Source: Beroe forskalii (taxonomy: Eukaryota; Ctenophora; Nuda; Beroida; Beroidae). Taken from it: a stretch of 64,000 nt of DNA. The notes beneath the pieces were generated by a model, which searched no databases, was not told the origin of the DNA, and saw nothing but the letters and a program-made list of their open reading frames with translations. The translations under genes were made by a program, and so were the position numbers. Of the stretch, positions 556-64,000 are shown in pieces. Positions within the stretch are counted from its first letter, which is position 1. The number at the start of each line of letters is the position of its first letter. The DNA lies in the NCBI GenBank assembly GCA_011033025.1, contig WFMF01000338.1, positions 1 through 64,000 on the forward strand, written 5' to 3'.

Positions 556-3500
556 TTATTCCATTCTGTGCTCAAATTCTGACTTTTTTATTCTTAGGAT
601 GTTAGCTAATGTAGTCTGTTCCACTGCTGTTTTGTATCTCTCCTGCTCACTCTTGATGTGGTCTGAAAGTGATGGAGATGAGCGTCAATGTATGAGCATA
701 TGGATAATCTCAGAAAGTCCCGAGGTAAGAATAATTCAACGATATTAAATATTCATTATGATCGTCAAAAGATAGACAAAGAAAGAGGCAGCAGTCTTAC
801 CACAATTCTTTAGTTTCTTTTTGAATGTTTGATGACTGGCTTCACCACCCTGCTCATTGTAGAGCCCACTGTACCACCCAAATTCCTTGACCTGATCTAG
901 CAGGTGGTCTTCGATGAAATGTATCTGTAAAAAACATCGAGTTTATACTTTCATCGAGCATTCTACGTTCCTTTCATATCTACTACACTATAAGCCATAA
1001 TAGGCAGCTGAGTTTCAAATCGAAATACCTATCACATTCCAAATTTGATTTGAATTCGAGGATAGGTGATTTTGATTGATTGAAAACCCTCATTCGATGG
1101 CGGTGGAATTTAGTGGACCCGCAGCGTACTTTTTGAAAGTCCGCCGCGGAATTGCGGGTCCGCCGCGGATTTTCCAGGGCTTGGCTAGTGCTCTGTGCAG
1201 TTTCATTTTCAATTTCTGCATATTTAATACCTATTTTTCTAAATGTTATTTTTCATTATTCTGATACCTTGGGTGGGATTGTTTTGAAGGCTTTCCTGTA
1301 GGCGATCAGGAAGAGGACTATATCCTTCTCAAGGTCGTCAACTTCTTGCCCAACCACTGTAGCGGAACTGATCTTTCTAAAAAATCTCCTGTATGCATCT
1401 GCCACCACGTTCAATGTAGAGAGCCTGTCCAAAAGCTTTTTCTTCTTCTCCTCAGAAAGCCACTTATTTTCGGAAACATTACACGTCCAAAATTGCGAGA
1501 AATCTGATTTCACGAAATTTAGAGCGTCGTTGCCATTAAGCTGTCCTCCGAAGTGGGCTTTTGGTTTTACACCAAATGTAGAACATTTTGCCATAAATGA
1601 TTCTTGGGTGGGCCCACACCGAATCATCGCATCAGATGTTGTGCCATTTCTGATAGCTTCGGTGTGTGCGTGAAAATCACTGCCATCAAGAATCCCTAAA
1701 TCTTCACAGTCCAACCATCCATGTCCGATCTTATCTGCTAATTCCGTATCGACTTCGCATGCACACTCTATTTGTGCATCAAATAGGTCTTTGCCAACAC
1801 GTTGATTCTGAAAATATTAATTAAGAAGTGACGTTGATCACAACAATTCATTGTCGCCAGTGGTAAGTTAAACTTGGAGTCTACCTCATTTCGATTGGTG
1901 CTTATATTAATATAGCCAAGATTTAGTTTATATAGTCGATTTAACAAGGTGAATGTACCAAACTATATGCCAATTTTTCAATTTCAAACGTACTTACAAT
2001 ATGTACAGATTGTACGATCATCCATTTCAACACTGGATCTGAATCATTACCATTAACCGCATGTTTGAGTAGTGGCTCAGTCTTGACGTTGTAATAGTGA
2101 GACTGTTTTGATACGTCACATCCAGTTTCTCTAAAAGGAATATGTATTTTAGTGGATTTTTCAGTTGTTTTCGTAACAGTGTAACCAATACCATTCATCG
2201 ACTCCGCTGGGGATAATGAAGAGCCCAGAGTTATATGGGACACTAGCCCATCAATGCCACTTAAATAAGTTGCGAAAATTTACGCGATGATATATGATAT
2301 TTTTTAGAATCTCACCTTGCATTGTTACGGTAATGTTCCCAAAATTCTTCTAGACTTCTGAGCATTGCTTTGTCCCTCTTACACAATGGTGTAGCCATTT
2401 CACCATGTCTAATGTAACAGAAAGGACATGGAAAGGTGCCATAGGATGTTGGCATACCAAGGCACTGAAAGTGAAAAGGAGTTGAAATTACTAAATTCCC
2501 TATATTTTTATGCTCATTAATGCCGGTTAAAATGGGACCGATGGAATAAAATGACAGATAATCCGGATCTTATAAGTAATGGATACCTGCCACTGTGCTT
2601 TTGTGTCCATGGTGAGAACGAATGTATGTGGGTTGTCTCTCTTCATTGACAATAATCGTTCCATATTGGTGTTCAAATACTTGAAATAGACACGTAAATT
2701 GTACTCTGTGTCTGGTCCGGATGAAAGCAGCATTATATAGTGATGGTATGCTGAATTTGGATTGGATTGGTTCAAAAGATTGAGGAGTAGTTTAGTACCA
2801 CCTGCATCTGTGTCCGTGAATATTTTGAACCTTAAAGTATTAGTGCATATTTGAAAACCTCTTTTTCGTAACGGAAGGAATCGATAGCATTTTTCTCTCA
2901 TAACTTACCTAATTTATACAGTAAAGCTATGAAATATTGCACACTTTACCTGTCCTATGTCACAAAGGTTCAGTTGAAATATCTGATAGATATCAGGAAC
3001 ACATAAGGAGCTATGTCCATTCAAACATTTCGTAACGGAAGGCGAGATAAATATCCACTCAAAATTTTTTTCCACAAAAATTCAATTTTTATCTCAGAAA
3101 TTGGTTGGAATTCAAATATTCCAACGGGATAACCAAATTTAACCATTTCACTTTAACATTCAGTTGGGAATTAGCAAATTTTTGAAAGTAAAAACAATTT
3201 TCTTTGACGTTAAAAATGTGTACTATTTTGTAACGGAAGGAATTGGATTTTGTAACGGAGGGAATATCGATTATCTCCATTTTCCCGCTACACACAGAGG
3301 AATTAACTATTCAGAATGGTTGTTTATCAAAGAGGCTGTCCACCTGGGCACTTTAATTTGTATTGGTGTTCGAAAATCGTGAATTATTTGCAATAAAAGT
3401 GCCACTTTGCCTAAGAACAACAAGAGAGAAATTGGTGCTTTTTCATTAGTTTAAAATGAATTACACATCAGCGGATGATTACTAAGGTAATAATCTTGTT

Positions 3501-14175: not shown

Positions 14176-16772
14176 TATTTATTGTTGAATTTGTTAATTG
14201 CATTTGATTTGATACTTCACACATTGAATTATGCTTAACTGTCATTTTTTGCTTTTCTTTGGTGCAATGGTGCTTTGCTTAAATATCTACGTGATCTGAA
14301 GCTGTCACGGTTTGTTTTGACGCCATCAGGCCACGCCTGACTAGTAATGGTTTCGGTGTATAACAATTTAACAATCGCATTCTATCAAAATACATGCTAT
14401 AATACTGGTAAAAACCCTAACAAGAAGCTTCAGGTCACGTGACTAGTTTTGGGGCACGCGCGATGAAATTCTCTGATACCAAGCACCATTTCGCGCACGT
14501 ACGCATTTGTATCAAAATGAGTACGTATCATGCGCGTCGTAAAATCAGGCAGCAAAGTTGGATCAGACCCTTATTTTAAATAAATTAAAATTTTTAAATA
14601 ATGGGTCTGACGACGTCAGACAAATTTGTTTGGCGCCGATGACCCCTCGAGAATCAGCGCCGCGCGGCTGACGGGGTCATACATCAAAACAACAGTCACT
14701 GCATCAATGATTTGTCAAACGTTGTTCAGGTTCCCCCTTCGGGATCGACAGTCTGCCAGTCTGTCAATCAATGATCAATTTGTCAGGCGTTGCCTGACCT
14801 CGCGCGCACGCGAAGCGCCACGACTGCAGAGTCGTGAAACAAACAATTTTCAATAAAGGGTTGTTTATTTTCTTTTAACCTTGGGTACCTTAATATAAGC
14901 TTACTTCAACTAGAGCTCTAATTCCACCCTTGAATAGAGGGCTCTATTTTGGCAACAAATATTTTGGTCAAATATTCTTGTGCAATATGATTTGAGTCGC
15001 GTATTGCTTCAATTGATTTTTGGTTCTGATTTCACTGAAGATCCACCATAAAAGCAGAAATGACTGGTGGAGGTCATTGAATATAATGAATATAATCTTC
15101 ATCATTCACATTTGAAAACATTGACATATTCTGCAGTGATTTATAGATGCTAACTTTGCTATTTCTGCATAGATGAACCTAAAATGCAATTTGGTAGGCA
15201 AGAAAGATACTTCCACAATCTACAAAATATATATTTTGTCCTAACCAGGGCCCTGGTTTTGCACACAGAGTGTGCAGGGCGGCAAGCATATCAACACCCC
15301 TGGTTAGGGGAGTATATTTGTTCAAAGTTGAAAGTTGAAAGGATATCTATGATATGTCTTGGGTAATTTTAAAGGGTTTAGGTCAGCAATTTTTATCTAA
15401 TTTGAATTAAAAAGAAATCTTTCTTCAAGGCATCAATCTGCAAGACTTTTCTCCAACTCCATACTTGAACACCAACATTATCCCTTTAGGTAACATTTTC
15501 CAATGTAACATTTTCTAAATGTAATTGAAATTGGTGATATCCACAAATTGTCAAATCAAAGGAAAATTTCTTCTTTCAAGACATCAATCTGCAAGACTTT
15601 TCTTCAACTCTCTACTTGAACATCAACATGATCATACAATGTAAGTGACAACAAGATCTAAGATACAGATTAGTGATGTGCAGAATTTTCAGTCAATTTC
15701 CTTCTGTGCAGCTTCTGGGGTGCTTAAAATTGGTAGAGCTTTTTGATGAGTTAGGCCCCCTTGCAATTATTGTAGTCATGATATCCTAAAGTCATGATAT
15801 CCATGGGCTAGATTCCTTCATGCCTGGAATTGAATATATCCCTATTAAAATAAAACAAGTAATTTAATAAAACAAGTAATTTAATAAACAAGTAATTTAT
15901 ATTTTGTATTATTATATCAATTCTTTTCGATATATAGCAATTATGATTCAGATTTCATTGTCAATAGGCATAGAACATATTCCCAATAATTTAAACTAGA
16001 ACATATAAAATCAATTGAGAAATAATCTAGATAATAGCAATATTAAGCTAATTAAAAACAATATCTACCTTTTTATACATTAAAAAACGGTATAATATTA
16101 AAAACGATAGCAAATCCACGTGGCAAACTCCTCTAGACCACCATCACTCCATGTGGCAAAATAATTAGCTACACTTTAGCTAGAAACAACAGAGCTTTGT
16201 AACCACTTTAAAGGGCACCTCACCAAACTCTATAATGAAACAATGTTCCAAATCTAATAGTTATTATAATTCTGCCCTACAGCACTGTTTCGGCCCCTGA
16301 ATTCCAAGAAACTTGTTAACTTCAATACCACATTGCCCTATTGTGCATGAAACTTCTCATCACACTTAACAATAGCCCCTCTGCTCTAGTTAGCCTATGT
16401 GATAGTCACATGATTGAAACTCCCATACCTGCACCCCAAATACAACTCTAGCTAGTTAGCTAGTTGGTTCAAGTTAGTTCAAGTAAAAGTTGCAACTAAT
16501 CATGCTTCTTTGCTACCAAACCCACATGTATTATTAGTTACCCCCGGTACCACAGTTTAGTCACAATTCGGGTGCATTGCCTCAATGAAACTTGAACATT
16601 GCTCTTTGGTCTTTCTCTTTCTCAAGCATCAAGAAATTAAGTTATACTCTTATCAAAGAGAAGTACAGAGCAGTTGATGCATATATGTGTTTCTTTGTGT
16701 CCTTTTACTTTGCACGTGATTATAAATTTGCGAATTGGATGATTTGAAGATTTGAATATGATAGAAAATATT
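14176..16772. other. AT-rich spacer of unit 1, palindromes, no gene
   Basis: It contains two TCAGG-N5-CCTGA palindromes (14326-14340 and 14783-14797), an AT-rich inverted repeat at about 14567-14613 whose arms end in CAGACCC and GGGTCTG, and two copies of a CATCAATCTGCAAGACTTTTC segment (15430 and 15585). CTAACCAGGGCCCTGG and its partner lie near 15240-15310. I see no gene. Confidence 0.5.
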
Positions 16773-19542
16773 GGCAGGCTGCACTACCGGAAAAGATCAG
16801 CGCTGATCAGCGCCGACCCACCGCTGATCGCGATCGGCGGCGCTGATCAGCGCTGATCGGCGCTGATCGGCGCCGATCAGTTTATTGATCAGCGCTGATC
16901 AACGACACGCCGATCAACAAGCTGATCGGCTGATCAGCGCCGATGGAAAAATTAAAAATTTCATCGGCGGTCGTCAGCTGATCAGCGCCGATCGGCGATC
17001 AATCAGTGCTGATCGGCGAAATTGGCCGCCGATCAGCGCTGATCGCGCTGATCAGCGCCTACCAAAAACACCTGCATAAGAGCCTTTAGAAAACTCCATC
17101 GGCACTGATCAGCGCGATCAGCAAATCAGCGCCGATGGCAACCATAAATTCATTGATATGGACGTGTGGGTATGTTTCCCTTAAAATATAATTCCTGGCT
17201 GGCCCTGAGGAAACGTTTAATGGCAAATCCGCACCTAGGTTTTATCACAACATCAGCAACCATATCAATTGTCAACAAATAAAATTCAACAGTCTAAATA
17301 AATACAGACCCGTAGCGCCGGGCCGATTATAAGCTTACTTAAACAAATTTCTCAAATTGGACGTTGAGAACATTGGGAACAAAAATATTCCAAGTCCTGA
17401 GGTCGTAATCGAACGTATTTCGTTTATAACTCGGCTAGTCGGCTCAGGATAGACGTATTATACCTTTACTACTTTATTTCATAGACCCAACGTTGTTACG
17501 ACAGAGATGCGAAATGCGGCAACAGACGTCGTTATGACACAGAAACATCGTAACGACACATTTACGGCGTAGTAACACTGTTTACAATTACTGTATTAGC
17601 ACAGTATGTCACCGTTACGACACAGTGCTAAAAACCCGTTACGACGGTGTCACGATGACGACACTGTATTTGCTGTTATGATACAGTATCGTCGTTACGA
17701 CTCAGTATTTCGTCGTTACGACTCAGTAACGTCGTTACGATACAGTAATGCCGTTACGACACAGTAACGTTGTTGAAACAGTAAAGCCGTTACGACACAG
17801 TAACAACGTTACGACAGTATCGTCGTTACGACACAGTAAATACCGATTACAACACAGTATATTGTTACTTAGTTACTTGTTACCCATCAAAAAGCGATAT
17901 ATCAACGGGTCTTAAAAGTAAAATGGCATTTTCTGTCGTAAGTGCGCTTTATTTTGGCTATATAACAGTGTTAGTGTGTCGCACCGGTGTTGTGTGTCGT
18001 AACAATGTTTCGCCGAGTCATTACACCGTTACTGAATCGTACTTGTAACGACGACCGACGTTACTGAGAATTAACGGTCATAACGGTGTTACTGTCGTAA
18101 TCACGGTGTTACTGTGTCGTAATCGGGGGCATTTACTGTGTCATAGGGGTGTTACTATGTCACTGTGTCGTGTCGTAACGTTACTGTGTGGCCATACGAG
18201 TTTAAATGCTCCCCGTAGGACTCCGGGTACTCCCGTAGTACTCCCGGGGCACTCCGTAATTGCCCGGGGATCCTCAGGATCCCACATGGTTCTACCTGTA
18301 GTGGCCTGGTAGGACTCCCATGGGACCCCGGGGGACTCCCGTGGTACCCCGTAGAACTCCGTCGGACCCCGGGGGCATTCCCGTAGGACTTTCAGGGGTC
18401 TCCCGTAGGACCTCTGGGGACTCGAGCACTCCCGTAGGACCCCTGGGGACTCTCAGAGTACTCCCGAGTACTCCCCGTAGGGACCCTGGGGGTACCCTGC
18501 AGGGACCCCTGGGGACTCTAGAGTGCTCCCGTAGACCTCTGGGGGGCACCCCCGTAGACCCCGAGACTCCCCGGGGACCCTGCAGGGACTCCTGGGGACC
18601 CCGTGACCTCCTGGGGGTACCCCGTGGACCCCCAGACCCCTGGGGACTCCTCGAGTACTCCCCGGAGTACCCCAGACTCTGGGTAATTCTGTAGGACCTC
18701 AAATTTCGCAGACTCCTGGGGTACTCCCTTGGGACTCCTGGGGGTACCCCTGTAGGGGACCTCTGGGGTACCCCAGTAGGGACCTCTTATAGGGGACCGA
18801 GTACCCCGAAGGGACTCCTGGGAGTCTCCCCAATACTCTGCTCGTAAGACTGCCACAACCTAGGGCAGGAGGGAATGTGTCTTTCAGGTGCAAGCGGTTG
18901 GGACCACCACATCAACCAGCCGTAATCAGGGTTGGCTCATGGAGTGTGCGGGTGCTGGATGCACCCAAAGCAGACATAGGAAGGCTGTCCCTATAACTCT
19001 ATAAATCCTTCCTTCCTGACGACCTGCCGTGCGCCGCCCATCCTCTTGACCCACCCCATCCACTTTGATCAATTTATCGGACTCTTTAACGTCACCAGGC
19101 CAGCTGTAGTTCATATTTTTGCTGGAAACATACCCAATATCGTCCATTTCAATGCGGAATTTAGTAAAGTTTTGCGAGCTGGCGCCGGATCGCGCCATCG
19201 GCGCTGATCAGCGCGATCAGCGCCGATGGAGTTTTCTAAGGCTCTGGCAAGCTTTGCCGAGATCAGCGCGATCAGCGCTGACCAGCGCCAATTTCGCCGA
19301 TCAGCGCTGATTGACGCCGATCGGCGCTGACCAGATGCTGATCGGCGCTGATCAGCGCCACCAAGCGCCGACGACCGCCGATGAAATTTTTAATTTTTTC
19401 CATCGGCGCTGATCATGCCGATCAGCGCTGATCGGTGGTGTCGCTGATCAAAGGCCATCGCTGATCATGCCGATCAGCGCTTGACGGCGGTGGGTCATGC
19501 TGATCAGCGCGATCGGCGCGATTGCAAGGTGCCCATTCTGCC
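16773..19542. mobile_element. Element I, copy 1 (degraded or poorly sequenced)
   Basis: This is the same insertion as copy 2, because both are flanked by AAAATATT (16765-16772 and 19543-19550). Its left end is garbled after GGCA, and the palindromic TIR units and both minisatellites carry many indels absent from copies 2 and 3. Long ORFs on both strands from 18106 to 18893 are artefacts of the CTCCCGTAGGA minisatellite. Confidence 0.85.
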
Positions 19543-19699
19543 AAAATATTTTTTCCTTAGAATATTTCCTTTTTCTGAAATATTATTATAATGACAATGT
19601 ATGTGTCTAATACTTAAGTATATCACACATTGTATGTAAAGTAAGAAGATTTATTGAAAAAATTAATAAGCCTATTGTTTCTTCCTCTAGGCAGCTCTG

Positions 19700-22622
19700 A
19701 TGACTACCATCTCTTCCAGCAAGTATTTCAAAGTAAGATCAAAACAAGGAATTATAAACTGGGCACAGGTCATTCGTTTAGGCTCCACAGTTACTCACAT
19801 AGAGTAATCTGCGTCTCTATTGTTAAGGGATACTTGCTTTTTAGCAACAGAAGAGAGTAGCAATGATGGGCCCCCATACTCTGGAGCATCTCATTTTCTC
19901 TTGGGACCTGATTCCTATCCATACAAAGCGTTATTGGACTAGCAGCACCCCTGCTGTCTTGCTCAGGGCACTAATGCCTGGACACTAATAGATCATACAT
20001 GTTATACAGTTGATGGGTGTGAAGGATTCTCACTCTTATTTTATATATTCGGATCACATCTTCTTCCCAACACTATTTGAGGTATTTCCAAGACAGAGGT
20101 TCAATGGCATCAATGGCAAAGGTGATGATGTTGGAGTAGTTTATCAGGAGATGCAAGCTATGGAAAACTGTGCTTTTTGGGACGTGAAAACATGCACTTC
20201 AAAACATTGTAAACAAAAATGACCGGATACAAATGGGAAACTGGAGGTATAATGAAAACCTAATGAACTTCATGTTCAAATGAAAAAGTAAGTTTTCCAC
20301 AAGAAGTATTATAGTCAGGTGAATGTCATCATTTGTGGTGATATTGAGATCAATAAAGTCTTTTTGATGTTCTAATCAGTTGATGAAAGTCTTGCTAACT
20401 GTCAGTCATATGGACCTTATGAAAACCTTGACCAAAAGGGACTATTTCTGATGCTTATCATACTAAAGAAGTTAAATTCCTGCTAAAGATGAAGATAATG
20501 GCAGGGCATTGTACATGGAAAAGGACCATCCATATGTGATATAAAAGGGTCATGCTAATACAGTATTTTTATGGAATTATATGATCAAAACATCAGTTGC
20601 ACCTCTATAAAAGCACTGGCTGATGTTCCAGAGCCATACTGAAATCATCTATTTGTTGTTCACATCTATGGATCATCCAACCACATTGATGAAAATAATA
20701 TTCACGAAAAGTCAAGGCAGGCAAGCATGACAAACTTTAGAGATGTAGCTTTCAGACCATGAAGGACATGTTGAAGCAAACATGGACATGGTTAGCCAAA
20801 ATCAGATAAAGAACAGAATGAATAATCTATTCGGCCAGTTAGAAAACAAACTTCTGAATTGCTTGCTGAATTGGTCATTTTAGATGATTTAAGGTGGTGG
20901 TGAGAAAACCAGTCATATTTTATTTCATTTATTAAAATATTCAATGTCCTGAGATTTGGCTGAAGAAACTTCATCATTCTTGGAAAAACATCCTGTCTTA
21001 TTATATTGATCGTAACCTAATGTCACAATTAGTATCCCTAGTGCTCAGTTTATGAGTATCTTGAAGAAAACTGAAAAGCTATGGATAATAGAGCAACAGA
21101 ATCAGTTAGGAACCAGTGGCATGGGCTAGAATGTGAAAGGATTCTAAAATGAATGTACTGAGTTCAATGAGAAAAATCTAGATGAAGTGAAAAGGTTATT
21201 TTGCAAATTTACCCACCCTGAACTTGGAGATTGCATGAATTTTCATGAATTGGAATACAAAGGTTGAGGTTATTGAAGGATGTCTATTACATGAGATTGA
21301 AAGCGAATTGAAAGTTAGATTTATTTCTCATTTGATACAGAAAGTTTCATTCAATGATGAAAAGTCTCTACTTGGTTTGTATTCATTCATGCTTCTTTGT
21401 GAGATACAGACCTGTTACATGGTGGCCAAAATTTCATGTGAAGATGCAATCTATTAAAAAGAAGAGTTACTTGATGCCAAATGTTATATTGTTATGCATA
21501 GAACAGAATCATTAGCAGAAATGATTTTATTTTTCAAATTTGTGAGAATATAGATCAATGTCAAGAATCATAAAGAATGTCATTTGTAAATAAAATACTA
21601 CTGTAGACGTGTCACAACAGCTGTGAATAAATTAAGTCATCTACTATTGACAGTTCACAGAGCTCCAGTTGTCACAGTTGGATATAGTCACAAAGTTTCC
21701 ATGGGAGCTGCAACAAGCAGAAACTTGTTCTCTCAATCAAAGTTGCTTGAAAATTGGTGGTATTTATTATCTCCCATCTCTTAGTTGAAAAGTTGGAAGC
21801 GACTCCAGAAGAAACTTTTTAATGAGAACAAAATTACTCACATGTAGCAAACGAAAGTACTCTGGGAAGCATGTCCAAAAAATTTGAGGATTTGGCTAAA
21901 AATGTATCACCTATCCAAGGCCAACATTCCTTCAGCTCTTTCCTGCTCACTTTCGCTGCAAAGGGATTTGGTACTAATAATATCATTAAAGTTGTCAATA
22001 CTGATGAATCCAAAGAGTTTGAGAATCAGTTCACAGTTGAGCTCCCCTTATGGTCAGCCTGTGATCTTTTTACCAGTCATGTTGTTTGCTGAATATTTAG
22101 ACCAATGTGAAGGTCCCTTTTGGAAACAACAGATCAGAGGACAAGGCTTTGCTACTGTTTATAACCTTTACAACAGTCTCTGCTTCAGGTTTCATCTGTT
22201 TTCACCTGGCAGAGCATCAAATGTACAAGTTTATAATTGCAAAGCAAACTGTTGAAGATATCATAAGTGAAGGTAAACTTGGATGAGACACAAATACAAA
22301 CTGCCAAAGGTGCTCTACCAGGCTTGATTCAGAAGAAACCCTTCCTCATCTGCTTTCTCTCCGTCATAAACAACATACAGAGTGCTCCTCCTGCACAACA
22401 TGACAAAGATTTGATCATGCAATTGGAAAAAGACAACTGAATTCGACTTGCTGGAAGTATCAAAGAAGTATTTCAAGAGTCTCTCTTCTCATGAAGCTAG
22501 TTGTGTTATTTCTGTCGCCCTAAGAACAAGAAGGAAGAAATTCTCAGTAATATGTTGGGAATTCAAGTATGGAATTTACTGAGATAGACAATATTGAAAA
22601 CATGAGTTCATTGGACTACTAA
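19700..22622 (+). pseudogene. M16 metallopeptidase (C05D11.1-like), multiply frameshifted copy
   Basis: This is colinear with the gene at 32743-35690. It starts after the same acceptor (CCTCTAG at 19690) with ATG at 19700 and ends at the matching TAA. Tens of single-base indels break the frame, so the longest surviving open pieces are about 70-120 codons (for example 20010-20222 and 21884-22255). Recognisable remains include the CATCTCATTTT zinc-motif region near 19890, which has lost clean framing. The neighbouring non-coding DNA has the same indel density, so either this is an old pseudogene in uniformly decaying DNA or the segment is unpolished sequence. It also preserves correct bases at two sites where the better copy is shifted. 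Confidence 0.85.
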
Positions 22623-27119: not shown

Positions 27120-29741
27120 TAATATTTATTGTTGAATTTGTTAATTGCATTTGATTTGATACTTCACACATTGAATTATGCTTAACTGTCATTTTTTGCT
27201 TTTCTTTGGTGCAATGGTGCTTTGCTTAAATATCTACGTGATCTGAAGCTGTCACGGTTTGTTTGACGCCATCAGGCCACGCCTGACTAGTAGTAGTTTC
27301 GGTGTATAACAATTTAACAATCGCATTCCTATCAAAATACATGCTATAATACTGGTAAAACCCTAACAAGAAGCTTCAGGTCACGTGACTAGTTTTGGGG
27401 GCACGCGCGATGAAATTCTCGTACAACACCAATTTCGCGCACGTACGTACATATCCAAAATGAGTACGTATCATGCGCGTCGTAAAAAATCAGGCGTAAG
27501 TTGGATCAGACCCTTATTTTAAATAAATTTAAAATTTTAAATAATGGGTCTGACGACGTCAGACAAATTTGTTTGGCGTTGACAGACCCCTCGAGAATCA
27601 GCGCCGCGCGGCTGACGGGTCATACATCGTACGACAACACTGCATCAATGATTTGTCAAACGTTGTCTAGGTCTTACCCCTTCGGATCGACAGCGTCTGT
27701 TGTCTGTCAATCAATGATCAATTTGTCAGGCGTTGCCTGACCCCCTCGCGCGCGCGAAGCGCGCGCGCCACGACTCGCAGAGTCGTGAAACAAACAATTT
27801 TCAATAAAGGGTTATTTAATTTTCTTTTAACCTTGGGTACCTTAATATAAGCTTACTCTAACCAGAGCTCTAATTTCCACCCTTGAATAGAGGGCTCTAT
27901 TTTGGCAACAAATATTTTGTAGTCAAATATTCTTGTGCAATATGATTTGAGTCATGTATTGCTTCAATTGATTTTGGTTCTGATTTCACTGAAGATCCAC
28001 CATAAAAGCAGAAATGACTGGTGGAGGTCATTGAATATAATGAATATAATCTTCATCATTCACATTTGAAAACATTGACATATTCTGCAGTGATTTATAG
28101 ATGCTAACTTTGCTATTTCTGCATAGATGAACCTAAAATGCAATTTGGTAGGCAAGAAAGATACTTTACAATCTACAAAATATATATTTTGTCTAACCAG
28201 GGCCCTGGTTTGCACACAGAGTGTGCAGGGCAGCAACATATCAACACCCCTGGTTAGGGGAGTATATTTGTTCAAAGTTGAAAGTTGAAAGGATATCTAT
28301 GATATGTCTTGGGTAATTTTAAAGGGTTTAGGTCAGCAATTTTTATCTAATTTGAATTAAAAAGAAATCTTTCTTCAAGGCATCAATCTGCAAGACTTTT
28401 CTCCAACTCCATACTTGAACACCAACATTATCCCTTTAGGTAACATTTTCCAATGTAACATTTTCTAATGTAATTGAAATTGGTGATATCTACAAATTGT
28501 CAAATCAAAAAGGAAAATTTCTTCAAGACATCAATCTGCAAGACTTTTCTTCAACTCTCTACTTGAACATCAACATGATCATACAATGTGGTGAGCAGCA
28601 AGATCTAAGTGATACAGATTAGTGATGTGCAGGAATTTTCAGTCAATTTCCTTCCAGTAGCTTCTGGGGTGCTTAAATTGGTAGAGCTTTTGATGAGTTA
28701 GGCCCCCTTGCAATTATTGTAGTCATGATATCCTAAAGTCATGATATCCATGGGCTAGATTCCTTCATGCCTGGAATTGAATATATCCCTATTAAATAAA
28801 ACAAGTAATTTAATAAAACAAGTAATTTAATAAAACAAGTAATTTATATTTTGTAGCCATTATATCAATTCTTTTCAATGCTATAGCAATTATGATTCAG
28901 ATTTCATTGTCAATAGGCATAGAACATATTCAATAATTTAAACTAGAACATATAAAAATCAATTGAGAATAATCTAGATAATATAATATTAAGCTAATTA
29001 AAAACAATATCTACCTTTTTATACATTAAAAACGGTATAATATTAAAAACGATAGCAAATCCACGTGGCAAACTCCTCTTAGACCACCATCACACTCCAT
29101 GTGGCAAAATAATTAGCTACACTTAGCTAGAAACAACAGAGCTTTGTAACCACTTTAAAGGGCACCTCACCAAACTCTATAATGAAACAATGTTCCAATC
29201 TAATAGTTATTATAATTCTGCCCTACAGCACTGTTTCGCCCCCTGAATTCCAAGAAACTTCTTGTTAACTTCCAATACCACATTGTGCCTATTGTGCATG
29301 GAAACTTCTCATCACACTTAACAATAGCCCTCTGCTCTAGTTAGCCTATGTGATAGTCACATGATTGAAACTCCCCATACCTGCACCCAAATGCAACTCT
29401 AGCTAGTTAGCTAGTTGGTTCAAGTTAGTTCAAGTAAAAGTTGCAACTATAATCATGTCTTCTTTGCCTACCAAACCCACATGTATTATTAGTTACCCCC
29501 TGGTACCACAGTATAGCACAAGTCAAGTGCATTGACCACCTGCCTGAATGAAACTGAACATTGCTCTTTGGTCTTTCTCTTTTCTCCAAGCATCAAGAAA
29601 TTAAGTTATACTCTTATCAAAGAGAAGTACAGGAGCAGTTGATGCATATATGTGTGTTTCTTTGTGTCCTTTTACTTTGCACATTGATTATAAATTTGCG
29701 AATTGATGATTTGAAATGATTTGAATATGATAGAAAATATT
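27120..29741. other. AT-rich spacer of unit 2, palindromes, no gene
   Basis: Same content as 14176-16772: TCAGG-N5-CCTGA palindromes at 27272-27286 and 27726-27740, the CAGACCC/GGGTCTG inverted repeat at about 27506-27550, and duplicated CAATCTGCAAGACTTTTC segments. No gene seen. Confidence 0.5.
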
Positions 29742-30205
29742 GGCACATGGGCACCTTGCAATCGGCGCCGATCAGCGCTGATCAGCGCCGACCCACCGCT
29801 GATCGGCGCTGATCGGCGCTGATCAGCGCTGATCGGCGCTGATCGGCGCTGATCAGCGATTGATCAGCGCTGATCAGCGACACCGCCGATCAGCGCTGAT
29901 CGGCGCTGATCAGCGCCGATGGAAAAAATTAAAATTTCATCGGCGGTCGTCGGCGCTGATCAGCGCCGATCGGCGATCAATCAGCGCTGATCGGCGAAAT
30001 TGGCCGCTGATCAGCGCTGATCGGCGCTGATCAGCGCCTACCAAAACACCTGCATAAGAGCCTTAGAAAACTCCATCGGCGCTGATCAGCGCTGATCAGC
30101 GCCGATCAGCGCCGATCGCAAACTTACTAAATTCGCATTGATATGGACGTGTGGGTATGTTTCCTTAAAAATATAATTCCGGCTGGCCCTGGAAACGTTT
30201 AATGG
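29742..30205. repeat. Left TIR of Element I, palindrome array
   Basis: About twenty head-to-tail GCGCTGATCAGCGC/CGATCGGCG units, interrupted by short conserved spacers (ATGGAAAAAATTAAAATTTC, CCTACCAAAACACCTGCATA). Each unit is itself palindromic, so the arm can fold on itself as well as pair with the right TIR. Confidence 0.9.
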
Positions 30206-30469
30206 CAAATCCTCGCACCTAGGTTTATCACAACATCAGCAACCATATCAATTGTCAACAACAAAATTCAACAGTCTAAATAAATACAGACCCGTAGCGC
30301 CGGGCCGATTATAAGCTTACTTAAACAAATTTCGTAAATTGGACGTTGAGAACATTGGGAACAAAAATATTCCAAGTCCTGAGGTCATAATCGAACGTAT
30401 TTCGTTTATAACTCGGCTAGTCGGCTCAGGATAGACGTATTATACCTTTACTACTTTACTTATAGACCG

Positions 30470-31185
30470 CAACGTTGTTACGACAGAGATGCGAAGTAAC
30501 GGCACAGACGCTCCGTTATGACACAGAAACATCGTAACGACACATTTACGGCGTAGTAACACTGTTTACAATTACTGTAATTAGGCACAGTACGTCACCG
30601 TTACGACACAGTAAAGCAGAAACACCGTTACGACTACGTCACAGTGACGACACTGTATTGCTGTTATGATACAGTATCGTCGTTACGACTCAGTATCGTC
30701 GTTACGACTCAGTAACGTCGTTACGACACAGTAATGCCGTTACGACACAGTAACGTTGTTACGAAACAGTAAAGCCGTTACGACACAGTAACAACGTTAC
30801 GACAGTATCGTCGTTACGACACAGTAACACCGTTACAACACAGTAATATTGTTACTTAGTTACTTGTTACCCATCAAAAGCGATATATCAACGGGTCTTA
30901 AAAGTAAAATGGCATTTTCTGTCGTAAGTGCCTTATTTTGGCTATATAACAGTGTTAGTGTGTCGCACCGGTGTTATTGTGTCGTAACAATGTTACCGAG
31001 TCATTACACCGTTACTGAATCGTACTTGTAACGACGACCGACGTTACTGAGAGTGTGTCGTAACGGTGTTACTGTGGCGTAACGGTGTTACTGCGTCGTA
31101 ATCACGGTGTTACTGTGTCGTAACGGTGTTACTATGTCATAGGGGTGTTATACTGTGTCGTAACGGTGTTACTGTGTGGCCATAC
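30470..31185. repeat. Nested inverted minisatellite inside Element I
   Basis: Left of about 30850 the repeat reads CGTTACGACACAGTAA; right of about 30940 it reads TGTGTCGTAACGGTGTTACT, the reverse complement. The two arrays form an inverted repeat nested within the TIRs. The same structure is in copies 1 and 3. Confidence 0.85.
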
Positions 31186-31189
31186 GAGC

Positions 31190-31850
31190 GAATTACTCCC
31201 GTAGGACTCCCGGGGTACTCCCGTAGTACTCCCGGGGTACTCCCGTAGTACTCCCGGGGGACTCCTGTAGGACTCCCGCGGTTCTACCGTAGTACCGTAG
31301 GACTCCCGTAGGACTCCCGGGGGACTCCCGTGGTACTCCCGTAGAACTCCCGTCGGACTCCCGGGGGTATTCCCGTAGGACTTTCGGGGTACTCCCGTAG
31401 GACTCCCGGGGACTCTCGGAGTACTCCCGTAGGACTCCCGGGGACTCTCAGAGTACTCCCGGAGTACTCCCGTAGGACTCCTGGGGTACTCCCGTAGGAC
31501 TCCCGGGGACTCTTAGAGTACTCCCGTAGGACTCCTGGGGTACTCCCGTAGGACTCCCGTAGGACTCCCGGGGGACTCCCGTAGGACTCCTGGGGACTCC
31601 CGTAGGACTCCTGGGGTACTCCCGTAGGACTCCCGTAGGACCCCCGGGGGACTCTCGGAGTACTCCCGGAGTACTCCCGTAGGACTCCTGGGGTACTCCC
31701 GTAGGACTCCTGGGGTACTCTCGCAGGACTCCTGGGGTACTCCCGTAGGACTCCTGGGGTACTCCCGTAGGACTCCTGGGGTACTCCCGTAGGACTCCCA
31801 GGGGACTCTCGGAGTACTCCCGAAGGACTCCGGGGAGTCTCCCGCAATAA
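31190..31850. repeat. CTCCCGTAGGACTCC minisatellite inside Element I
   Basis: About 11-bp GC-rich subunits (CTCCCGTAGGA, CTCCCGGGGTA, CTCCTGGGGTA) repeat some 58 times. Because stop codons are rare in these words, a 187-codon minus-strand ORF rich in Ser, Gly, Pro and Tyr arises. It is not a gene: the equivalent ORFs in copies 1 and 3 differ in frame and length. Confidence 0.85.
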
Positions 31851-32111
31851 TTTGCTCGTATGACCGTTACGGTCCTAGGGATTGGGCAGGAGGGATGTGT
31901 CTTTCACAGGTGTAAGCGGTTGGACTACCACATCAACCAGCTGGGACCAGGGGCGGCTCTCATGAGTGTATGGGTGTTGAGATGCACCCAAAGCAGATAG
32001 GAAGGCTGTCCTCTTATAACTTTATAACCTCCTTCCTTCCTGACGACCTGCCGTGTGCCCATCCTCTTTGATCCAATTCCATCCACTTTGATCAATTTAT
32101 CGGACTCTTAA

Positions 32112-32578
32112 CGTCACCCAGGGCCAGCCAGAATTATATTTTTAAGGGAAACATACCCACACGTCCATATCAATGCGAATTTAGTAAGTTTGCGATTGGC
32201 GCTGATCGGCGCTGATCGGCGCTGATCAGCGCTGATCAGCGCCGATGGAGTTTTCTAAGGCTCTTATGCAGGTGTTTTGGTAGGCGCTGATCAGCGCCGA
32301 TCAGCGCTGATCAGCGGCCAATTTCGCCGATCAGCGCTGATTGATCGCCGATCGGCGCTGATCAGCGCTGATCGGCGCTGATCAGCGCTGATCAGCGCCG
32401 ACGACCGCCGATGAAATTTTAATTTTTCCATCGGCGCTGATCAGCGCCGATCAGCGCTGATCGGCGGTGTCGCTGATCAGCGCTGATCAATCGCTGATCA
32501 GCGCCGATCAGCGCCGATCGGCGGTGGGTCGGCGCTGATCAGCGCTGATCGGCGCCGATTGCAAGGTGCCCATCTGCC
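32112..32578. repeat. Right TIR of Element I
   Basis: It is the inverted counterpart of 29742-30205, including the spacers and the terminal AAGGTGCCCATCTGCC. Confidence 0.9.
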
Positions 32579-32723
32579 AAAATATTTTTTCCTTAGAATA
32601 TTTCCCTTTTTTCTGAAATATTATTATGCAATGACACAATGTATGTGTCTAATACTTAAGTATATCACACATTGTATGTAAAGTAAGAAGTGATTTATTG
32701 AAAAATTAATAAGCTCATTGTTT

Positions 32724-42185: not shown

Positions 42186-43835
42186 TCACGCATTTCACGG
42201 AATGCGTTGCACGTGCACGCATTCACGGAATGCGTTGCACGTGCACGCACTCACGGAATGTGCTGCACATGCACGCATTCACGGAATGTGCTGCACATGC
42301 ACGCATTCACGGAATGTGCTGCACATGCACGCATTCACGGAATGCGCTGCACATGCACGCATTCACGGAATGCGCTGCACATGCACGCATTCACGGAATG
42401 TGCTGCACATGTACGCATTCACGGAATGTGCTGCACATGCACGCATTCAAGGAATGTGCTGCACATGCACGCATTCAAGGAATGTGCTGCACATGCACGC
42501 ATTCACGGAAAATGCAGCACATGCACGCATTCACGGAATGTGCTGCACATGCACGCATTCACGGAATGTGCTGCACATGCACGCATTCACGGAATGTGCT
42601 GCACATGCACGCATTCACGGAATGTGCTGCACATGCACGCATTCACGGAATGTGCTGCATGCACGCATTCACGGAATGTGCTGCACATGCACGCATTCAC
42701 GGAATGTGCTGCACATGCACGCATTCACGGAATGTGCTGCACATGCACGCATTCACGGAATGTGCTGCACATGCACGCATTCACGGAATGTGCTGCACAT
42801 GCACGCATGTCACGGAATGTGCTGCACATGCACGCATTCACGGAATGTGCTGCACATGCACGCATTCACGGAATGTGCTGCACATGCACGCATTCACGGA
42901 ATGTGCTGCACACGCATTCACGGAATGTGCTGCACATGTACGCATTCACGGAATGTGCTGCACATGCACGCATTCAAGGAATGTGCTGCACATGCACGCA
43001 TTCAAGGAATGTGCTGCACATGCACGCATTCAAGGAATGTGCTGCACATGCACGCATTCAAGGAATGTGCTGCACATGCATGCATTTCACGGAGTGTGTT
43101 GCACATGCACGCATTCACGGAATGTGCTGCACATGCACGCATTCACGGAATGTGCTGCACATGCACGCATTCACGGAATGTGCTGCACATGCACGCATTC
43201 ACGGAATGTGCTGCACATGCACGCATTCACGGAATGTGCTGCACATGCACGCATCTCACGGAATGTGCCACACATTCACGCATTTCACGGAATGTGCTGC
43301 ACATGCATGCATTTCACGGAGTGTGTTGCACATGCACGCATTTCACGGAATGTGCTGCACGTCCAACCATTCACGTGCAAGCATTTCGCGGAACGCGCTG
43401 CACGTGCAATATTTCACGGAATGCGCTGCACGTGCAAGCATTTCACGGAATGCGCTGCACATGCAAGCATTTCACGGAATGCGCTGCATATGCAAGCATT
43501 TCACGGAATGCGCTGCACATGCAAGCATTTCACGGAATGGCGGAATGCGCTGCACATGCAAGCCAAGCATTTCACGGAATTGGAATGCGCTGCACATACA
43601 AGCATTTCACGGAATGCGCTGGACATGCAAGCATTTCACGGAATGCGCTGCACATGCAAAAATTTCGAGGAATGCACTGCACATGCAAACATTTCGAGGA
43701 ATGCGCTGCACATGCAAACATTTCGAGGAATGCGCTGCACGTGCAAACATTTCACGGAATGCGCTGCATTGCACGTGCAAACATTTCACGGAATGCGCTG
43801 CACGTGCAAACATTTTACGGAATGCATTCCACGTG
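42186..43835. repeat. 28-bp satellite array, about 58 copies
   Basis: The core unit is CACGGAATGTGCTGCACATG followed by CACGCATT. The centre (42260-43260) is very uniform. Both ends shift towards CGTTGCACGTGCA or CGCTGCACGTGCA forms, and the right third has 29-bp units with CATTTCACGG. As 28 is not a multiple of three and the unit has no stop in any plus frame, three overlapping 550-608-codon ORFs run through the array. They share no start context and translate to the same Cys/His-rich repeat in different offsets, so they are by-products. Confidence 0.95.
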
Positions 43836-51525: not shown

Positions 51526-51533
51526 CTTATGCC
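51526..51533. repeat. Target site duplication, left (CTTATGCC)
   Basis: Identical to 54333-54340 and directly abuts the TIR end GGCACATGGG. Confidence 0.95.
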
Positions 51534-54332
51534 GGCACATGGGCACCTTGCAATCGGCGCCGATCAGCGCTGATCAGCGCCGACCCACCGCCGATCGGCG
51601 CTGATCGGCGCTGATCAGCGCTGATCGGCGCTGATCGGCGCTGATCAGCGATTGATCAGCGCTGATCAGCGACACCGCCGATCAGCGCTGATCGGCGCTG
51701 ATCAGCGCCGATGGAAAAAATTAAAATTTTCATCGGCGGTCGTCGGCGCTGATCAGCGCTGATCAGCGCCGATCAGCGCTGATCAGCGCCGATCGGCGAT
51801 CAATCAGCGCTGATCGGCGAAATTGGCCGCTGATCAGCGCTGATCGGCGCTGATCAGCGCCTACCAAAACACCTGCATAAGAGCCTTAGAAAACTCCATC
51901 GGCGCTGATCAGCGCTGATCAGCGCCGATCAGCGCCGATCGCAAACTTACTTAATTCGCATTGATATGGACGTGTGGGTATGTTTCCCTTAAAAATATAA
52001 TTCCGGCTGGCCCTGGGAAACGTTTAATGGCAAATCCTCGCACCTAGGTTTATCACAACATCAGCAACCATATCAATTGTCAACAACAAAATTCAACAGT
52101 CTAAATAAATACAGACCCGTAGCGCCGGGCCGATTATAAGCTTACTTAAACAAATTTCGTAAATTGGACGCTGAGAACATTGGGAGCAAAAATATTCCAA
52201 GTCCTGAGGTCATAATCGAACGTATTTCGTTCATAACTCGGCTCAGGATAGACGTATTATACCTTTACTACTTTACTTATAGACCGCAACGTTGTTACGA
52301 CAGAGATGCGAAGTAAAGGCACAGACGCTCCGTTATGACACAGAAACACCGTAACGACACATTTACGGCGTAGTAACACTGTTTACAATTACTGTAATTA
52401 GGCACAGTACGTCACCGTTACGACACAGTAAAGCAGAAACACCGTTACGACTACGTCACAGTGACGACACTGTATTGCTGTTATGATACAGTATCGTCGT
52501 TACGACTCAGTATCGTCGTTACGACTCAGTAACGTCGTTACGACACAGTAATGCCGTTACGACACAGTAACGTTGTTACGAAACAGTAAAGCCGTTACGA
52601 CACAGTAACAACGTTACGACAGTATCGTCGTTACGACACAGTAACACCGTTACAACACAGTAATATTGTTACTTAGTTACTTGTTACCCATCAAAAGCGA
52701 TATATCAACGGGTCTTAAAAGTAAAATGGCATTTTCTGTCGTAAGTGCGTTATTTTGGCTTTATAACAGTGTTAGTGTGTCGCACCGGTGTTATTGTGTC
52801 GTAACAATGTTCCCGAGTCGTTACACCGTTACTGAATCGTACTTGTAACGACGACCGACGTTACTGAGAGTGTGTCGTAACGGTGTTACTGTGGCGTAAC
52901 GGTGTTACTGCGTCGTAATCACGGTGTTACTGTGTCGTAACGGTGTTACTATGTCATAGCGGTGTTATACTGTGTCGTAACGGTGTTACTGTGTGGCCAT
53001 ACGAGCGAATTACTCCCGTAGGACTCCCGGGGTACTCCCGTAGTACTCCCGGGGTACTCCCGTAGTACTCCCGGGGGACTCCTGTAGGACTCCCGCGGTT
53101 CTACCGTAGGACTCCCGGGGGACTCCCGTGGTACTCCCGTAGAACTCCCGTCGGACTCCCGGGGGTATTCCCGTAGGACTTTCGGGGTACTCCCGTAGGA
53201 CTCCCGGGGACTCTCGGAGTACTCCCGTAGGACTCCCGGGGACTCTCGGAGTACTCCCGGAGTACTCCCGTAGGACTCCTGGGGTACTCCCGTAGGACTC
53301 CCGGGGGACTCCCGTAGGACTCCTGGGGACTCCCGTAGGACTCCTGGGCTACTCCCGTAGGACCCCCGGGGGACTCTCGGAGTACTCCCGGAGTACTCCC
53401 GTAGGACTCCTGGGGTACTCCCGTAGGACTCCTGGGGTACTCCCGCAGGACTCCTGGGGTACTCCCGTAGGACTCCTGGGGTACTCCCGTAGGACTCCTG
53501 GGGTACTCCCGTAGGACTCCCAGGGGACTCTCGGAGTACTCCCGAAGGACTCCGGGGAGTCTCCCGCAATAATTCGCTCTTATGACCGTTACGGTCCTAG
53601 GGATTGGGCAGGAGGGATGTGTCTTTCACAGGTGTAAGCGGTTGGACTACCACATCAACCAGCTGGGACCAGGGGCGGCTCTCATGGGTGTATGGGTGTT
53701 GAGATGCATCCAAAGCAGATAGGAAGGCTGTCCTCTTATAACTTTATAACCTCCTTCCTTCCTGACGACCTGCCGTGTGCCCATCCTCTTTGATCCAATT
53801 CTATCCACTTTGATCAATTTATCGGACTCTCAACGTCACCCAGGGCCAGCCAGAATTATATTTTTAAGGGAAACATACCCACACGTCCATATCAATGCGA
53901 ATTTAGTAAGTTTGCGATCGGCGCTGATCGGCGCTGATCGGCGCTGATCAGCGCTGATCAGCGCCGATGGAGTTTTCTAAAGCTCTTATGCAGGTGTTTT
54001 GGTAGGCGCTGATCAGCGCCGATCAGCGCTGATCAGCGGCCAATTTCGCCGATCAGCGCTGATTGATCGCCGATCGGCGCTGATCAGCGCTGATTGGCGC
54101 TGATCAGCGCTGATCAGCGCCGACGACCGCCGATGAAATTTTTAATTTTTTCCATCGGCGCTGATCAGCGCCGATCAGCGCTGATCGGCGGTGTCGCTGA
54201 TCAGCGCTGATCAATCGCTGATCAGCGCCGATCAGCGCCGATCAGCGCTGATCAGCGCCGATCAGCGCCGATCGGCGGTGGGTCGGCGCTGATCAGCGCT
54301 GATCGGCGCCGATTGCAAGGTGCCCATCTGCC
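51534..54332. mobile_element. Element I, copy 3: inserted in the gag ORF
   Basis: It is 2,799 bp, with the same ends, TIRs and internal arrays as copy 2, to which it is nearly identical. Target duplication CTTATGCC lies at 51526-51533 and 54333-54340. A second, independent insertion site with its own exact 8-bp duplication fixes the element's ends. Its internal ORFs (52949-53569 minus, 52666-52848 plus) are array by-products. Confidence 0.95.
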
Positions 54333-54340
54333 CTTATGCC
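54333..54340. repeat. Target site duplication, right (CTTATGCC)
   Basis: Directly follows the TIR end CCCATCTGCC of Element I copy 3. Confidence 0.95.
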
Positions 54341-56883: not shown

Positions 56884-57254
56884 GGCATAATCCACGATTT
56901 TTGCAAGTACACCTGAATTCGCCGCGAATTCGCCGCGAATTCAAGTGAATTCAGGTGAATTCAGGTGAATTCGGCGGGAGTTCGCCAAAAAATTTTGGCG
57001 GACTCCGCCGGACTCCGCCGGAGTCCGCCGCGAACTCCGGCGAATTCACTTGAATTCACCTGAATTCGCCGCGAATACGCGTATTCGGTGTACTAGTTCG
57101 CCAATTTTCCAGTTCACCCAGGTGAACTGCCAGTTCGCGGCGAATTCGCGGCGAACTAGTTCGCCTGAATTCAGATGCCGGAGTCCGCCTGAGTTCGCCG
57201 GAGTCCGCCTGAGTTCGCCGGAGGGAAACTTGCCCAAAGCCCAAATCAGTACGA

Positions 57255-62894: not shown

Positions 62895-64000
62895 GGCATA
62901 ATCCACGATTTTTGCAAGTACACCTGAATTCGCCGCGAATTCGCCGCGAATTCAAGTGAATTCAGGTGAATTCAGGTGAATTCGCGGCGGAGTTCGCCAA
63001 AAAAAAATTTTGGCGGACTCCGCCGGAGTCCGCCGGAGTTCGCCGCGGACTCTGGCGAATTCACCTGAATTCACCTGAATTCGCCGCGAATACACGCGTA
63101 TTCGGTGTACTAGTTCGCCAATTTTCCAGTTCACCCAGGCGAACTCAGGTGAACTTGGGCGAACTTGGGCGAACTCAGGTGAACTCAGTTCGCGGCGAAT
63201 TCACCTGAACTTTGAAGGAACTTTGTCACGTCTGGCACGCTTATGTGAGACTAAGATGCAATTCACAATGTCTACCAATATATGCGTGTCGTCATGGATC
63301 CAAAGAACCTTAGGGGAGCCGTCACATATTAGGTCATCACTCGACGGGAGGGAGGGGGTTTTCAAATGCTGACAGGTGATGACAGGGGGGAGGGAGGGGG
63401 TTTAAGGTTTGCCGACGTCAGCGAAAATATTGAATTTTCTAAATTCGAAAATACGATATTCAAACTTTTTCGTTCACAATATTTTGTTTTGATGTACCCA
63501 TTTCATTTCTTTGATATGATATCTATATTTCCAAACTAACTGGATGTTCGTCTATGACAATTAGAACCATTTTTTTTAACGAATTTAACGATATGAATCA
63601 CACCACACGTACATAGTTGATATTTCATGTCGGTTGTTTTGATTCGAAATAGTCAAAATTTGTTTTGAAAAAGGAGGGGGGTTTGGTCAATGCTGACGTC
63701 ATCATGGGGAGGGGTCAGCCAATGATGACAAGTGATGACAGACAGGGGGAGGGGGTTGAAAATGGGCAAAAAGTGATGACATAATATGTGACGGCTCCCT
63801 GATTAGGACACTAGAAAAATTGACATCAAGATCTGTGACGTCATTGTCAGGTGTTGCCTGACCCCCTGACGACTAAGGACATCGCTGATTCGCTGAGGAC
63901 AAAAACCAGTATCGGCGCATATAGCCGTAAATGGCTAAGTCCTTGTGGGTGAGGAGAATGCAGACCGTGGGGAGGCACCAGGATCTATCTTCTGTGAGGG
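62895..64000 (-). mobile_element. Element II, copy 2: inverted, runs off the window
   Basis: It begins GGCATAATCCACGATTTTTG inside the LINE relic. Its TIR (to about 63225) is clean compared with the matching end of copy 1 (58815-59119). Then come the MITE (63313-63799) and the start of the MULE-like relic (63850-64000), in reverse order relative to copy 1. Confidence 0.85.
63313..63799 (+). mobile_element. 487-bp MITE in Element II, copy 2
   Basis: GGGGAGCCGTCACATATTAG at the left, complement GTGATGACATAATATGTGAC...GGCTCCC at the right: TIRs of about 28 bp. Left flank TTA, right flank TGA, so a Harbinger-type TTA duplication is possible but not exact. Present at the same place in both Element II copies, so it entered before Element II spread. 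Confidence 0.78.

What the first reader, a model, noticed from the sequence alone, without database searches (positions are those of the whole stretch)
51526..54340. Element I: a 2.8-kb foldback transposon with palindrome-array TIRs and exact 8-bp target duplications
Two independent insertions (CTTATGCC at 51.5 kb, AAAATATT at 29.7 kb) define identical ends, GGCACATGGGCACC. The TIRs are about 465 bp and mostly made of 14-bp palindromes GCGCTGATCAGCGC, so each arm can fold alone or with its partner. Inside, a minisatellite is itself arranged as an inverted repeat. I know no named family with this combination. An 8-bp duplication with long TIRs suggests Mutator-like; hAT and P remain possible.
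Basis: partly seen in the sequence, partly recalled or inferred. Interest (0 to 1): 0.78.

Follow-up and report, generated by a model that had tools for sequence, protein, structure and literature searches.

The report
Foldback jumping gene, probably Merlin type
This is a non-coding jumping gene whose two ends are packed with short mirror-image repeats; its insertion marks and its resemblance to transposase-bearing neighbours in the same animal genome suggest that a Merlin-type enzyme moves it, which would be an unusual build for that family.

Summary
A 2,799-bp element sits at 51534-54332 between two copies of CTTATGCC. An empty copy of its target exists elsewhere in the same assembly (166 of 180 bases identical, no gap, one CTTATGCC). 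It belongs to a large family in a 216-Mb animal assembly: of 34 paired copies, 24 have exact 8-bp duplications and 0 have 9. Sizes run from 70-bp hairpins to 5.3 kb; no transposase was recognised in the copies examined.

Merlin (IS1595-type transposase) fits best. The genome holds at least 35 Merlin-domain places, of which I read 15. Eight show a GGCAG tip like this family's, and one-to-two-turn tandem arrays inside it are common. Their flanks share this family's target preference. One complete 2.7-kb Merlin has an exact 8-bp duplication and a palindromic 166-bp inverted repeat.

Against: no Merlin with this family's own ends was found, and a second tip block, CCGAC at 18-22 (7 of 15 Merlin loci), is absent here. 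Host MULE and hAT ends were not examined. I call it a non-autonomous foldback Merlin: a new variant of a known kind. Mobilisation by Merlin is inferred.

The parts
51526..51533 (.). left target-site duplication CTTATGCC
   Evidence: single copy in the empty site
51534..52024 (+). left terminal inverted repeat (491 bp), tip GGCACATGGGCACC, 10-bp palindromic array from position 20
52543..52659 (+). 19-bp minisatellite, left half of an inner inverted pair
52871..52994 (-). 19-bp minisatellite, right half of the inner inverted pair
53011..53553 (.). 11/44-bp minisatellite in the middle domain; the long open frame over it (52952-53596, minus) has no Pfam match
53832..54332 (-). right terminal inverted repeat (501 bp), tip GGCAGATGGGCACC read inward
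54333..54340 (.). right target-site duplication CTTATGCC
29734..29741 (.). left duplication AAAATATT of the second copy
29742..32578 (+). second independent copy of the element, 2,837 bp
32579..32586 (.). right duplication AAAATATT of the second copy
16773..19542 (+). indel-rich duplicate of the 29.7-kb insertion (same flanks), not an independent insertion

Best explanation
A non-autonomous cut-and-paste DNA transposon with foldback architecture, most likely of the Merlin superfamily. A Merlin (IS1595-type, DDE) transposase made elsewhere in the genome recognises the GGCA(G/C)ATG tips and probably the roughly one-turn array behind them, cuts the element out, and inserts it at an AT-rich, GAAATTTC-like site with 8-bp staggered nicks; repair gives the 8-bp duplication. 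SHOWN by sequence: ends, 8-bp duplications, the empty site, many copies, no recognised transposase in the copies examined, arms able to form hairpins, Merlin transposase genes in the same genome. INFERRED: that a Merlin enzyme is the mover, that the arrays bind it, and that arrays change length in 10-bp steps by slippage helped by their self-complementarity.
For: 24 of 34 copies with exact 8-bp duplications, 0 with 9. Ungapped empty site. Tips start GG, and PMC8101967 gives Merlin hallmarks as terminal GG, TIRs of 24-462 bp and 8- or 9-bp duplications (passages). At least 35 Merlin-domain places in the genome; six transposases aligned have invariant D, D, E. Of 15 Merlin loci read, 8 show a tip starting GGCAG (L079, L080, L082, L088, L089, L091, L093, L094). 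One complete Merlin, C171:120483-123218, has TSD CAATTTTC on both sides and a 166-bp palindromic TIR at 99.4%. Merlin left flanks (8 of 8 above the background mean) fit the family's target profile, p = 7e-6, rough.
Against: No Merlin gene was found between this family's own ends; the one near place, on C1107, was a 168-bp mini copy. The Merlin tip block CCGAC at 18-22, present in 7 of 15 Merlin loci, reads CAATC in this family. 0 of 16 fetched Merlin stretches contain the family's GATCRGCGC unit. Strict palindromy was not above shuffles in 6 of 8 other end-defined or arm samples (L082, L083, L089, L091, L093, L094). Ends of host MULE and hAT elements were not read.
Confidence: 0.75

Rival explanations
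1. A Mutator-like (MULE) foldback element: moved in trans by a host MULE transposase.
For: 46 MULE-domain places in the genome. PMC4079207 (passages) says most foldbacks seem to belong to Mutator and reports 8-10 bp duplications for Tetris.
Against: Duplications are 8 bp, never exactly 9, in 34 copies. Tip start and target profile are shared with host Merlins. No listed family end lies within 10 kb of a MULE place (lists; lists show only the first places).
Confidence: 0.12
2. A hAT or P-type non-autonomous element with 8-bp duplications.
For: Both make 8-bp duplications (recalled); 23 hAT-domain places in the genome.
Against: hAT and P tips as I recall them do not begin GGCAG. PF21787: 0 hits, but no control genome rang, so absence is not shown. 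No listed family end lies within 10 kb of a hAT place (lists).
Confidence: 0.07
3. A transposase superfamily not tested or not yet described moves it; the likeness to Merlin (GGCAG, AT-rich target, one-turn arrays) is chance or convergence.
For: No autonomous copy was found; CCGAC block missing; KDZ search (0 hits) had no control; 10-11 bp arrays also occur in another repeat of the window of unknown kind.
Against: Several independent likenesses to host Merlins point the same way.
Confidence: 0.05
4. Not a transposon: a satellite or assembly artefact.
For: Much of the length is tandem repeat, and one window copy is an indel-rich duplicate.
Against: Fixed ends, different 8-bp duplications at different sites, ungapped empty site.
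Confidence: 0.01

Closest known systems
Merlin superfamily (eukaryotic relatives of IS1016/IS1595)
   Same: Terminal GG, 8-bp duplications, long inverted repeats possible (24-462 bp in PMC8101967, passages), internal tandem repeats reported there; GGCAG tip shared with host Merlins.
   Different: No transposase gene; arms of about 500 bp filled with a 10-bp palindromic unit; lacks the host Merlins' CCGAC block.
Sea urchin TU elements (recalled; no call showed their duplications)
   Same: Recalled: foldback structure, outer domain of about 15-bp tandem repeats, 8-bp duplications, heterogeneous middles. The nearest described combination that I know.
   Different: Tips and unit could not be compared; superfamily not seen in anything I read. 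One search found one paper, PMC4079207, whose passages only list the sea urchin among foldback hosts.
Drosophila foldbacks: FB, Tetris, Galileo
   Same: Long TIRs with internal tandem repeats, variable middle domain, non-autonomous copies, and (Galileo, per PMC4079207 passages) repeats that hold extra transposase-binding sites.
   Different: Tetris duplications 8-10 bp and no superfamily assigned with certainty; Galileo belongs to P. No host P domain was found here (no control).
MITEs (miniature inverted-repeat elements)
   Same: The 70-209-bp copies are short hairpins with the same tips and often exact 8-bp duplications.
   Different: The window copies are 2.8 kb with arrays and minisatellites inside.

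Membership tests
Merlin superfamily | terminal 5'-GG at both ends | tested here: met
   GGCAC/GGCAG tips
Merlin superfamily | 8- or 9-bp target duplication | tested here: met
   24 of 34 exact 8 bp, 0 of 34 exact 9 bp; empty site
Merlin superfamily | DDE_Tnp_IS1595 transposase inside the element or in a partner with the same ends | tested here: not met
   none recognised in the copies examined; no Merlin gene found within the same ends. Only 15 of 35 Merlin places were read, so a partner may exist
Merlin superfamily | tip resembles that of Merlin elements in the same genome | tested here: inconclusive
   GGCAG shared with 8 of 15 Merlin loci read; CCGAC block at 18-22 (7 of 15) not shared
Merlin superfamily | same target-site preference as host Merlins | tested here: met
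   8 Merlin left flanks against the family profile, p = 7e-6, rough; only one of the 8 is a proven duplication
Mutator-like (MULE) | duplications mostly of 9 bp or more | tested here: not met
   0 of 34 with exact 9 bp; that MULEs mostly make 9 bp or more is recalled
Mutator-like (MULE) | MULE transposase in a partner with the same ends | tested here: inconclusive
   46 MULE places, none near a listed end, but MULE ends not read
hAT | hAT transposase in a partner with the same ends | tested here: inconclusive
   23 hAT places, none near a listed end, but hAT ends not read
P superfamily | P-type RNase H transposase in the genome | tested here: inconclusive
   PF21787: 0 hits, but no control genome rang
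Foldback structural class | long inverted repeats with internal tandem repeats around a variable, non-coding middle | tested here: met
Sea urchin TU elements | sequence of tips and 15-bp unit | not testable with these tools
   no TU sequence or Repbase/Dfam available

The most novel reading that the evidence does not exclude
The Merlin transposons of this animal share one design: a short fixed tip (GGCAG-N12-CCGAC) followed by a TIR array whose unit is about one or two helical turns (11, 12 or 21 bp), with a different unit sequence in each family. That would be a row of phased binding sites on one face of the DNA that is kept while its sequence is replaced. This family, with a 10-bp unit, is the extreme case: the unit became self-complementary and turned a Merlin element into a foldback, so that Merlin joins Mutator and P as a superfamily that reached that form.
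Probability: 0.4. Interest if true: 0.6.

Novelty: new variant of a known kind. Interest (0 to 1): 0.45.

Why it matters
Foldback elements are linked to inversions and to the birth of satellite DNA, and have been tied to Mutator and P transposases (PMC4079207, passages). A Merlin-linked foldback would support the idea that the form arises repeatedly from different transposons. Because one genome holds several Merlin families with different one-to-two-turn arrays, the role of such arrays (enzyme binding or mere slippage) could be tested directly.

Tried and rejected
Autonomous partner: I looked for long open frames in 22 elements and in L069-L078, scanned eight of the longest frames with Pfam (five no match; three weak matches of low-complexity frames below the curated cut-off), and compared listed end places with hAT, MULE and Merlin places and with an inner TIR stretch (40 of 131 candidates scored). 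The nearest cases were C1107 (2.7 kb; a complete 168-bp mini copy) and C891 (10.6 kb away, not followed). The place lists are capped. L041 (6.4 kb between ends) was rejected as a wrong pairing: it holds a 138-bp mini copy with its own duplication and a 7TM receptor frame. L039 and L040 (7.0 and 8.5 kb) lack duplications and were not resolved; they were kept in the count of 34. Left out of that count: the outer L041 pair, a weak L076 pair, eight loci with only one end in the stretch (L069-L075, L078), and the 16.8-kb duplicate.

Homogenisation of the two arms within a copy was rejected for the window's subfamily: by my tally (L049 read in reverse) 13 of 14 arms are closest to the same-side arm of another copy. 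Gaps between arms are often multiples of 10 (1073 of 2665 gaps of 5 or more), but the pairs are not independent and a periodic sequence favours such gaps. General palindromy of host Merlin TIRs was rejected: above shuffles only in L079, L080 and the L088 array (the row printed as 'L087 arrays' is L088 sequence). KDZ and P domain searches gave 0 hits without any control. Repbase and Dfam are not available here. A full-text search for the 14-mer found 0 papers.

Full report
CHECK. The element lies at 51534-54332 between two copies of CTTATGCC. Its arms are 491 and 501 bp, 96.4% identical as inverted repeats. Perfect palindromes of at least 8 bp cover 68% of the first 300 bp against 13% in dinucleotide shuffles, 0 of 200 shuffles as high. 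The left arm folds alone at -196.7 kcal/mol, z = -20.9. Inside, a 19-bp minisatellite forms an inverted pair, followed by an 11/44-bp minisatellite; the long open frame over it has no Pfam match. A second independent copy is at 29742-32578 with AAAATATT. The copy at 16773-19542 has the same flanks with small indels and is a duplicate of that insertion.

FAMILY. The window lies in a 216-Mb assembly of 1134 contigs. The 27-base end with up to 3 mismatches is found 65 times forward and 48 times reverse, reversed control 0 and 0; a 17-base version with up to 1 mismatch 70 and 58 times, control 0 and 0. Of 34 paired copies read, 24 have an exact 8-bp duplication, 4 match at 7 of 8, 4 at 5 of 8, 1 at 1 of 8 and 1 at 0 of 8; none has 9 exact. 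Pairing left and right flanks of different copies gives 1 exact match in 1122. By size, 11 of the 34 are 70-209 bp, one is 639 bp, 20 are 2.5-5.3 kb, and two of 7.0 and 8.5 kb lack duplications. Two minis folded as single strands form long hairpins, z = -11.5 and -10.3. The middles differ between subfamilies. L058 is inverted-repeat over its whole 3,171 bp and has telomere-like CCCTAA repeats inside.

EMPTY SITE. The flanks of the 51.5-kb copy, joined with one CTTATGCC, match C547:663369-663548 over all 180 bases. Read directly, 166 of 180 bases agree, without a gap and with one CTTATGCC. This shows a precise insertion with an 8-bp duplication.

WHAT MOVES IT. No transposase was recognised in the copies examined. 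The genome has at least 35 Merlin/IS1595 domain places, 46 MULE and 23 hAT; KDZ and P domains gave none, but without a control that rang. I read 6 Merlin places in 3.4-3.5 kb each and 9 more in 901 bases upstream, 15 of 35. Six transposases align with an invariant D, D and E, and the two scanned with Pfam match DDE_Tnp_IS1595. Tips starting GGCAG were seen in 8 of 15: L079, L080, L082, L088, L089, L091, L093 and L094; L090 has a near variant, and in L081, L083, L084, L086, L087 and L092 I could not define an end. Boundaries rest on comparison of two or more copies for L079/L080 and L091/L093/L094, and on inspection alone for L082, L088 and L089. One Merlin is complete on both sides: C171:120483-123218, 2736 bp, duplication CAATTTTC, TIR 166 bp at 99.4%, made of palindromic repeats of the TAGACGTCTA type.

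SHARED DESIGN, AND WHERE IT FAILS. GGCAG-N12-CCGAC occurs in 7 of the 15 Merlin loci (in five families by my grouping: L079/L080, L082, L088, L089, L093/L094) and in 0 of 438,002 positions of the window and family loci; L091 has GGCAG without it, and L094 has it twice. Behind it lie tandem arrays of 11 bp (L082, L089, L093, L094; also L090), 12 bp (L088) or 21 bp (L079, L080), starting at positions 23-33 except in L094 (97); L083 has 11-bp arrays in inverted arms, and an upstream array of L092, not tied to an end, has 15 bp. This family has GGCAG (GGCAC on one side in the window's subfamily) and a 10-bp array from position 20, but CAATC where those Merlins have CCGAC. In the rest of the window 10 of 37 arrays have periods of 10-11, 9 of them in another palindromic repeat at 56.9 and 62.9 kb, so such periods are not unique to Merlins. 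Strict palindromy exceeds shuffles in L079, L080 and L088 but not in L082, L083, L089, L091, L093, L094 or L092. The family unit GATCRGCGC is absent from all 16 fetched Merlin stretches, L079-L094.

TARGET. A profile from the 24 exact duplications has the symmetric consensus GAAATTTC. The left flanks of 8 Merlin tips score 0.5 to 4.2 against a background mean of -1.0 (p = 7e-6); the family's own sites, each left out in turn, average 0.3 (p = 8e-4). Overlapping background words make both p-values rough, and only one of the 8 flanks is a proven duplication.

COMPARISON. PMC8101967 (passages) gives Merlin's hallmarks as TIRs of 24-462 bp with terminal GG and 8- or 9-bp duplications, and reports tandem repeats inside Merlin elements. 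PMC4079207 (passages) says most foldbacks seem to be Mutator, with exceptions, and that the form may arise independently in different lineages. In the listings (open-access library only) I saw no title or abstract start that describes a foldback Merlin. Sea urchin TU elements, recalled, are the nearest described combination.

VERDICT. A real, precisely inserting, non-autonomous foldback family, most likely mobilised by a Merlin-type transposase. The assignment is inferred: no copy with the same ends and a transposase gene was found, one block of the host Merlin tip is missing, and MULE and hAT ends were not read.

Noticed in passing
window 16400-19700 versus 29600-32720: The same insertion with the same flanks appears twice, the first copy full of small indels: a duplicated segment or an uncorrected stretch of the assembly.
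   Followed up: partly
window 56885-57225 and 62896-63220: Another repeat built of 10-11-bp palindromic units (GAATTCGCCGC, GAATTCAGGT), starting GGCATAATCCACGATTTTTGC at 62896; by eye a relative also lies in L091. Its other end and duplications were not defined.
   Followed up: partly
L058 (C899:41870-45040): A full-length inverted repeat of 3,171 bp with the family's tips and telomere-like CCCTAA repeats inside.
   Followed up: no
L080 about 2230-3085: Downstream of the Merlin transposase a complete element seems to hold a second, proline-rich coding stretch (by eye).
   Followed up: no
L057, L069, L070 (C858): Three family ends on one contig share the same left flank, suggesting a segmental duplication or assembly duplicate.
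   Followed up: no
window 42187-43825: Long 28/29-bp tandem array (about 42 copies of a CACGCATTCACGGAATG-type unit in its first part) outside the elements.
   Followed up: no
L073 2728-3210: A family copy lies just beside an exon with an immunoglobulin I-set domain.
   Followed up: partly
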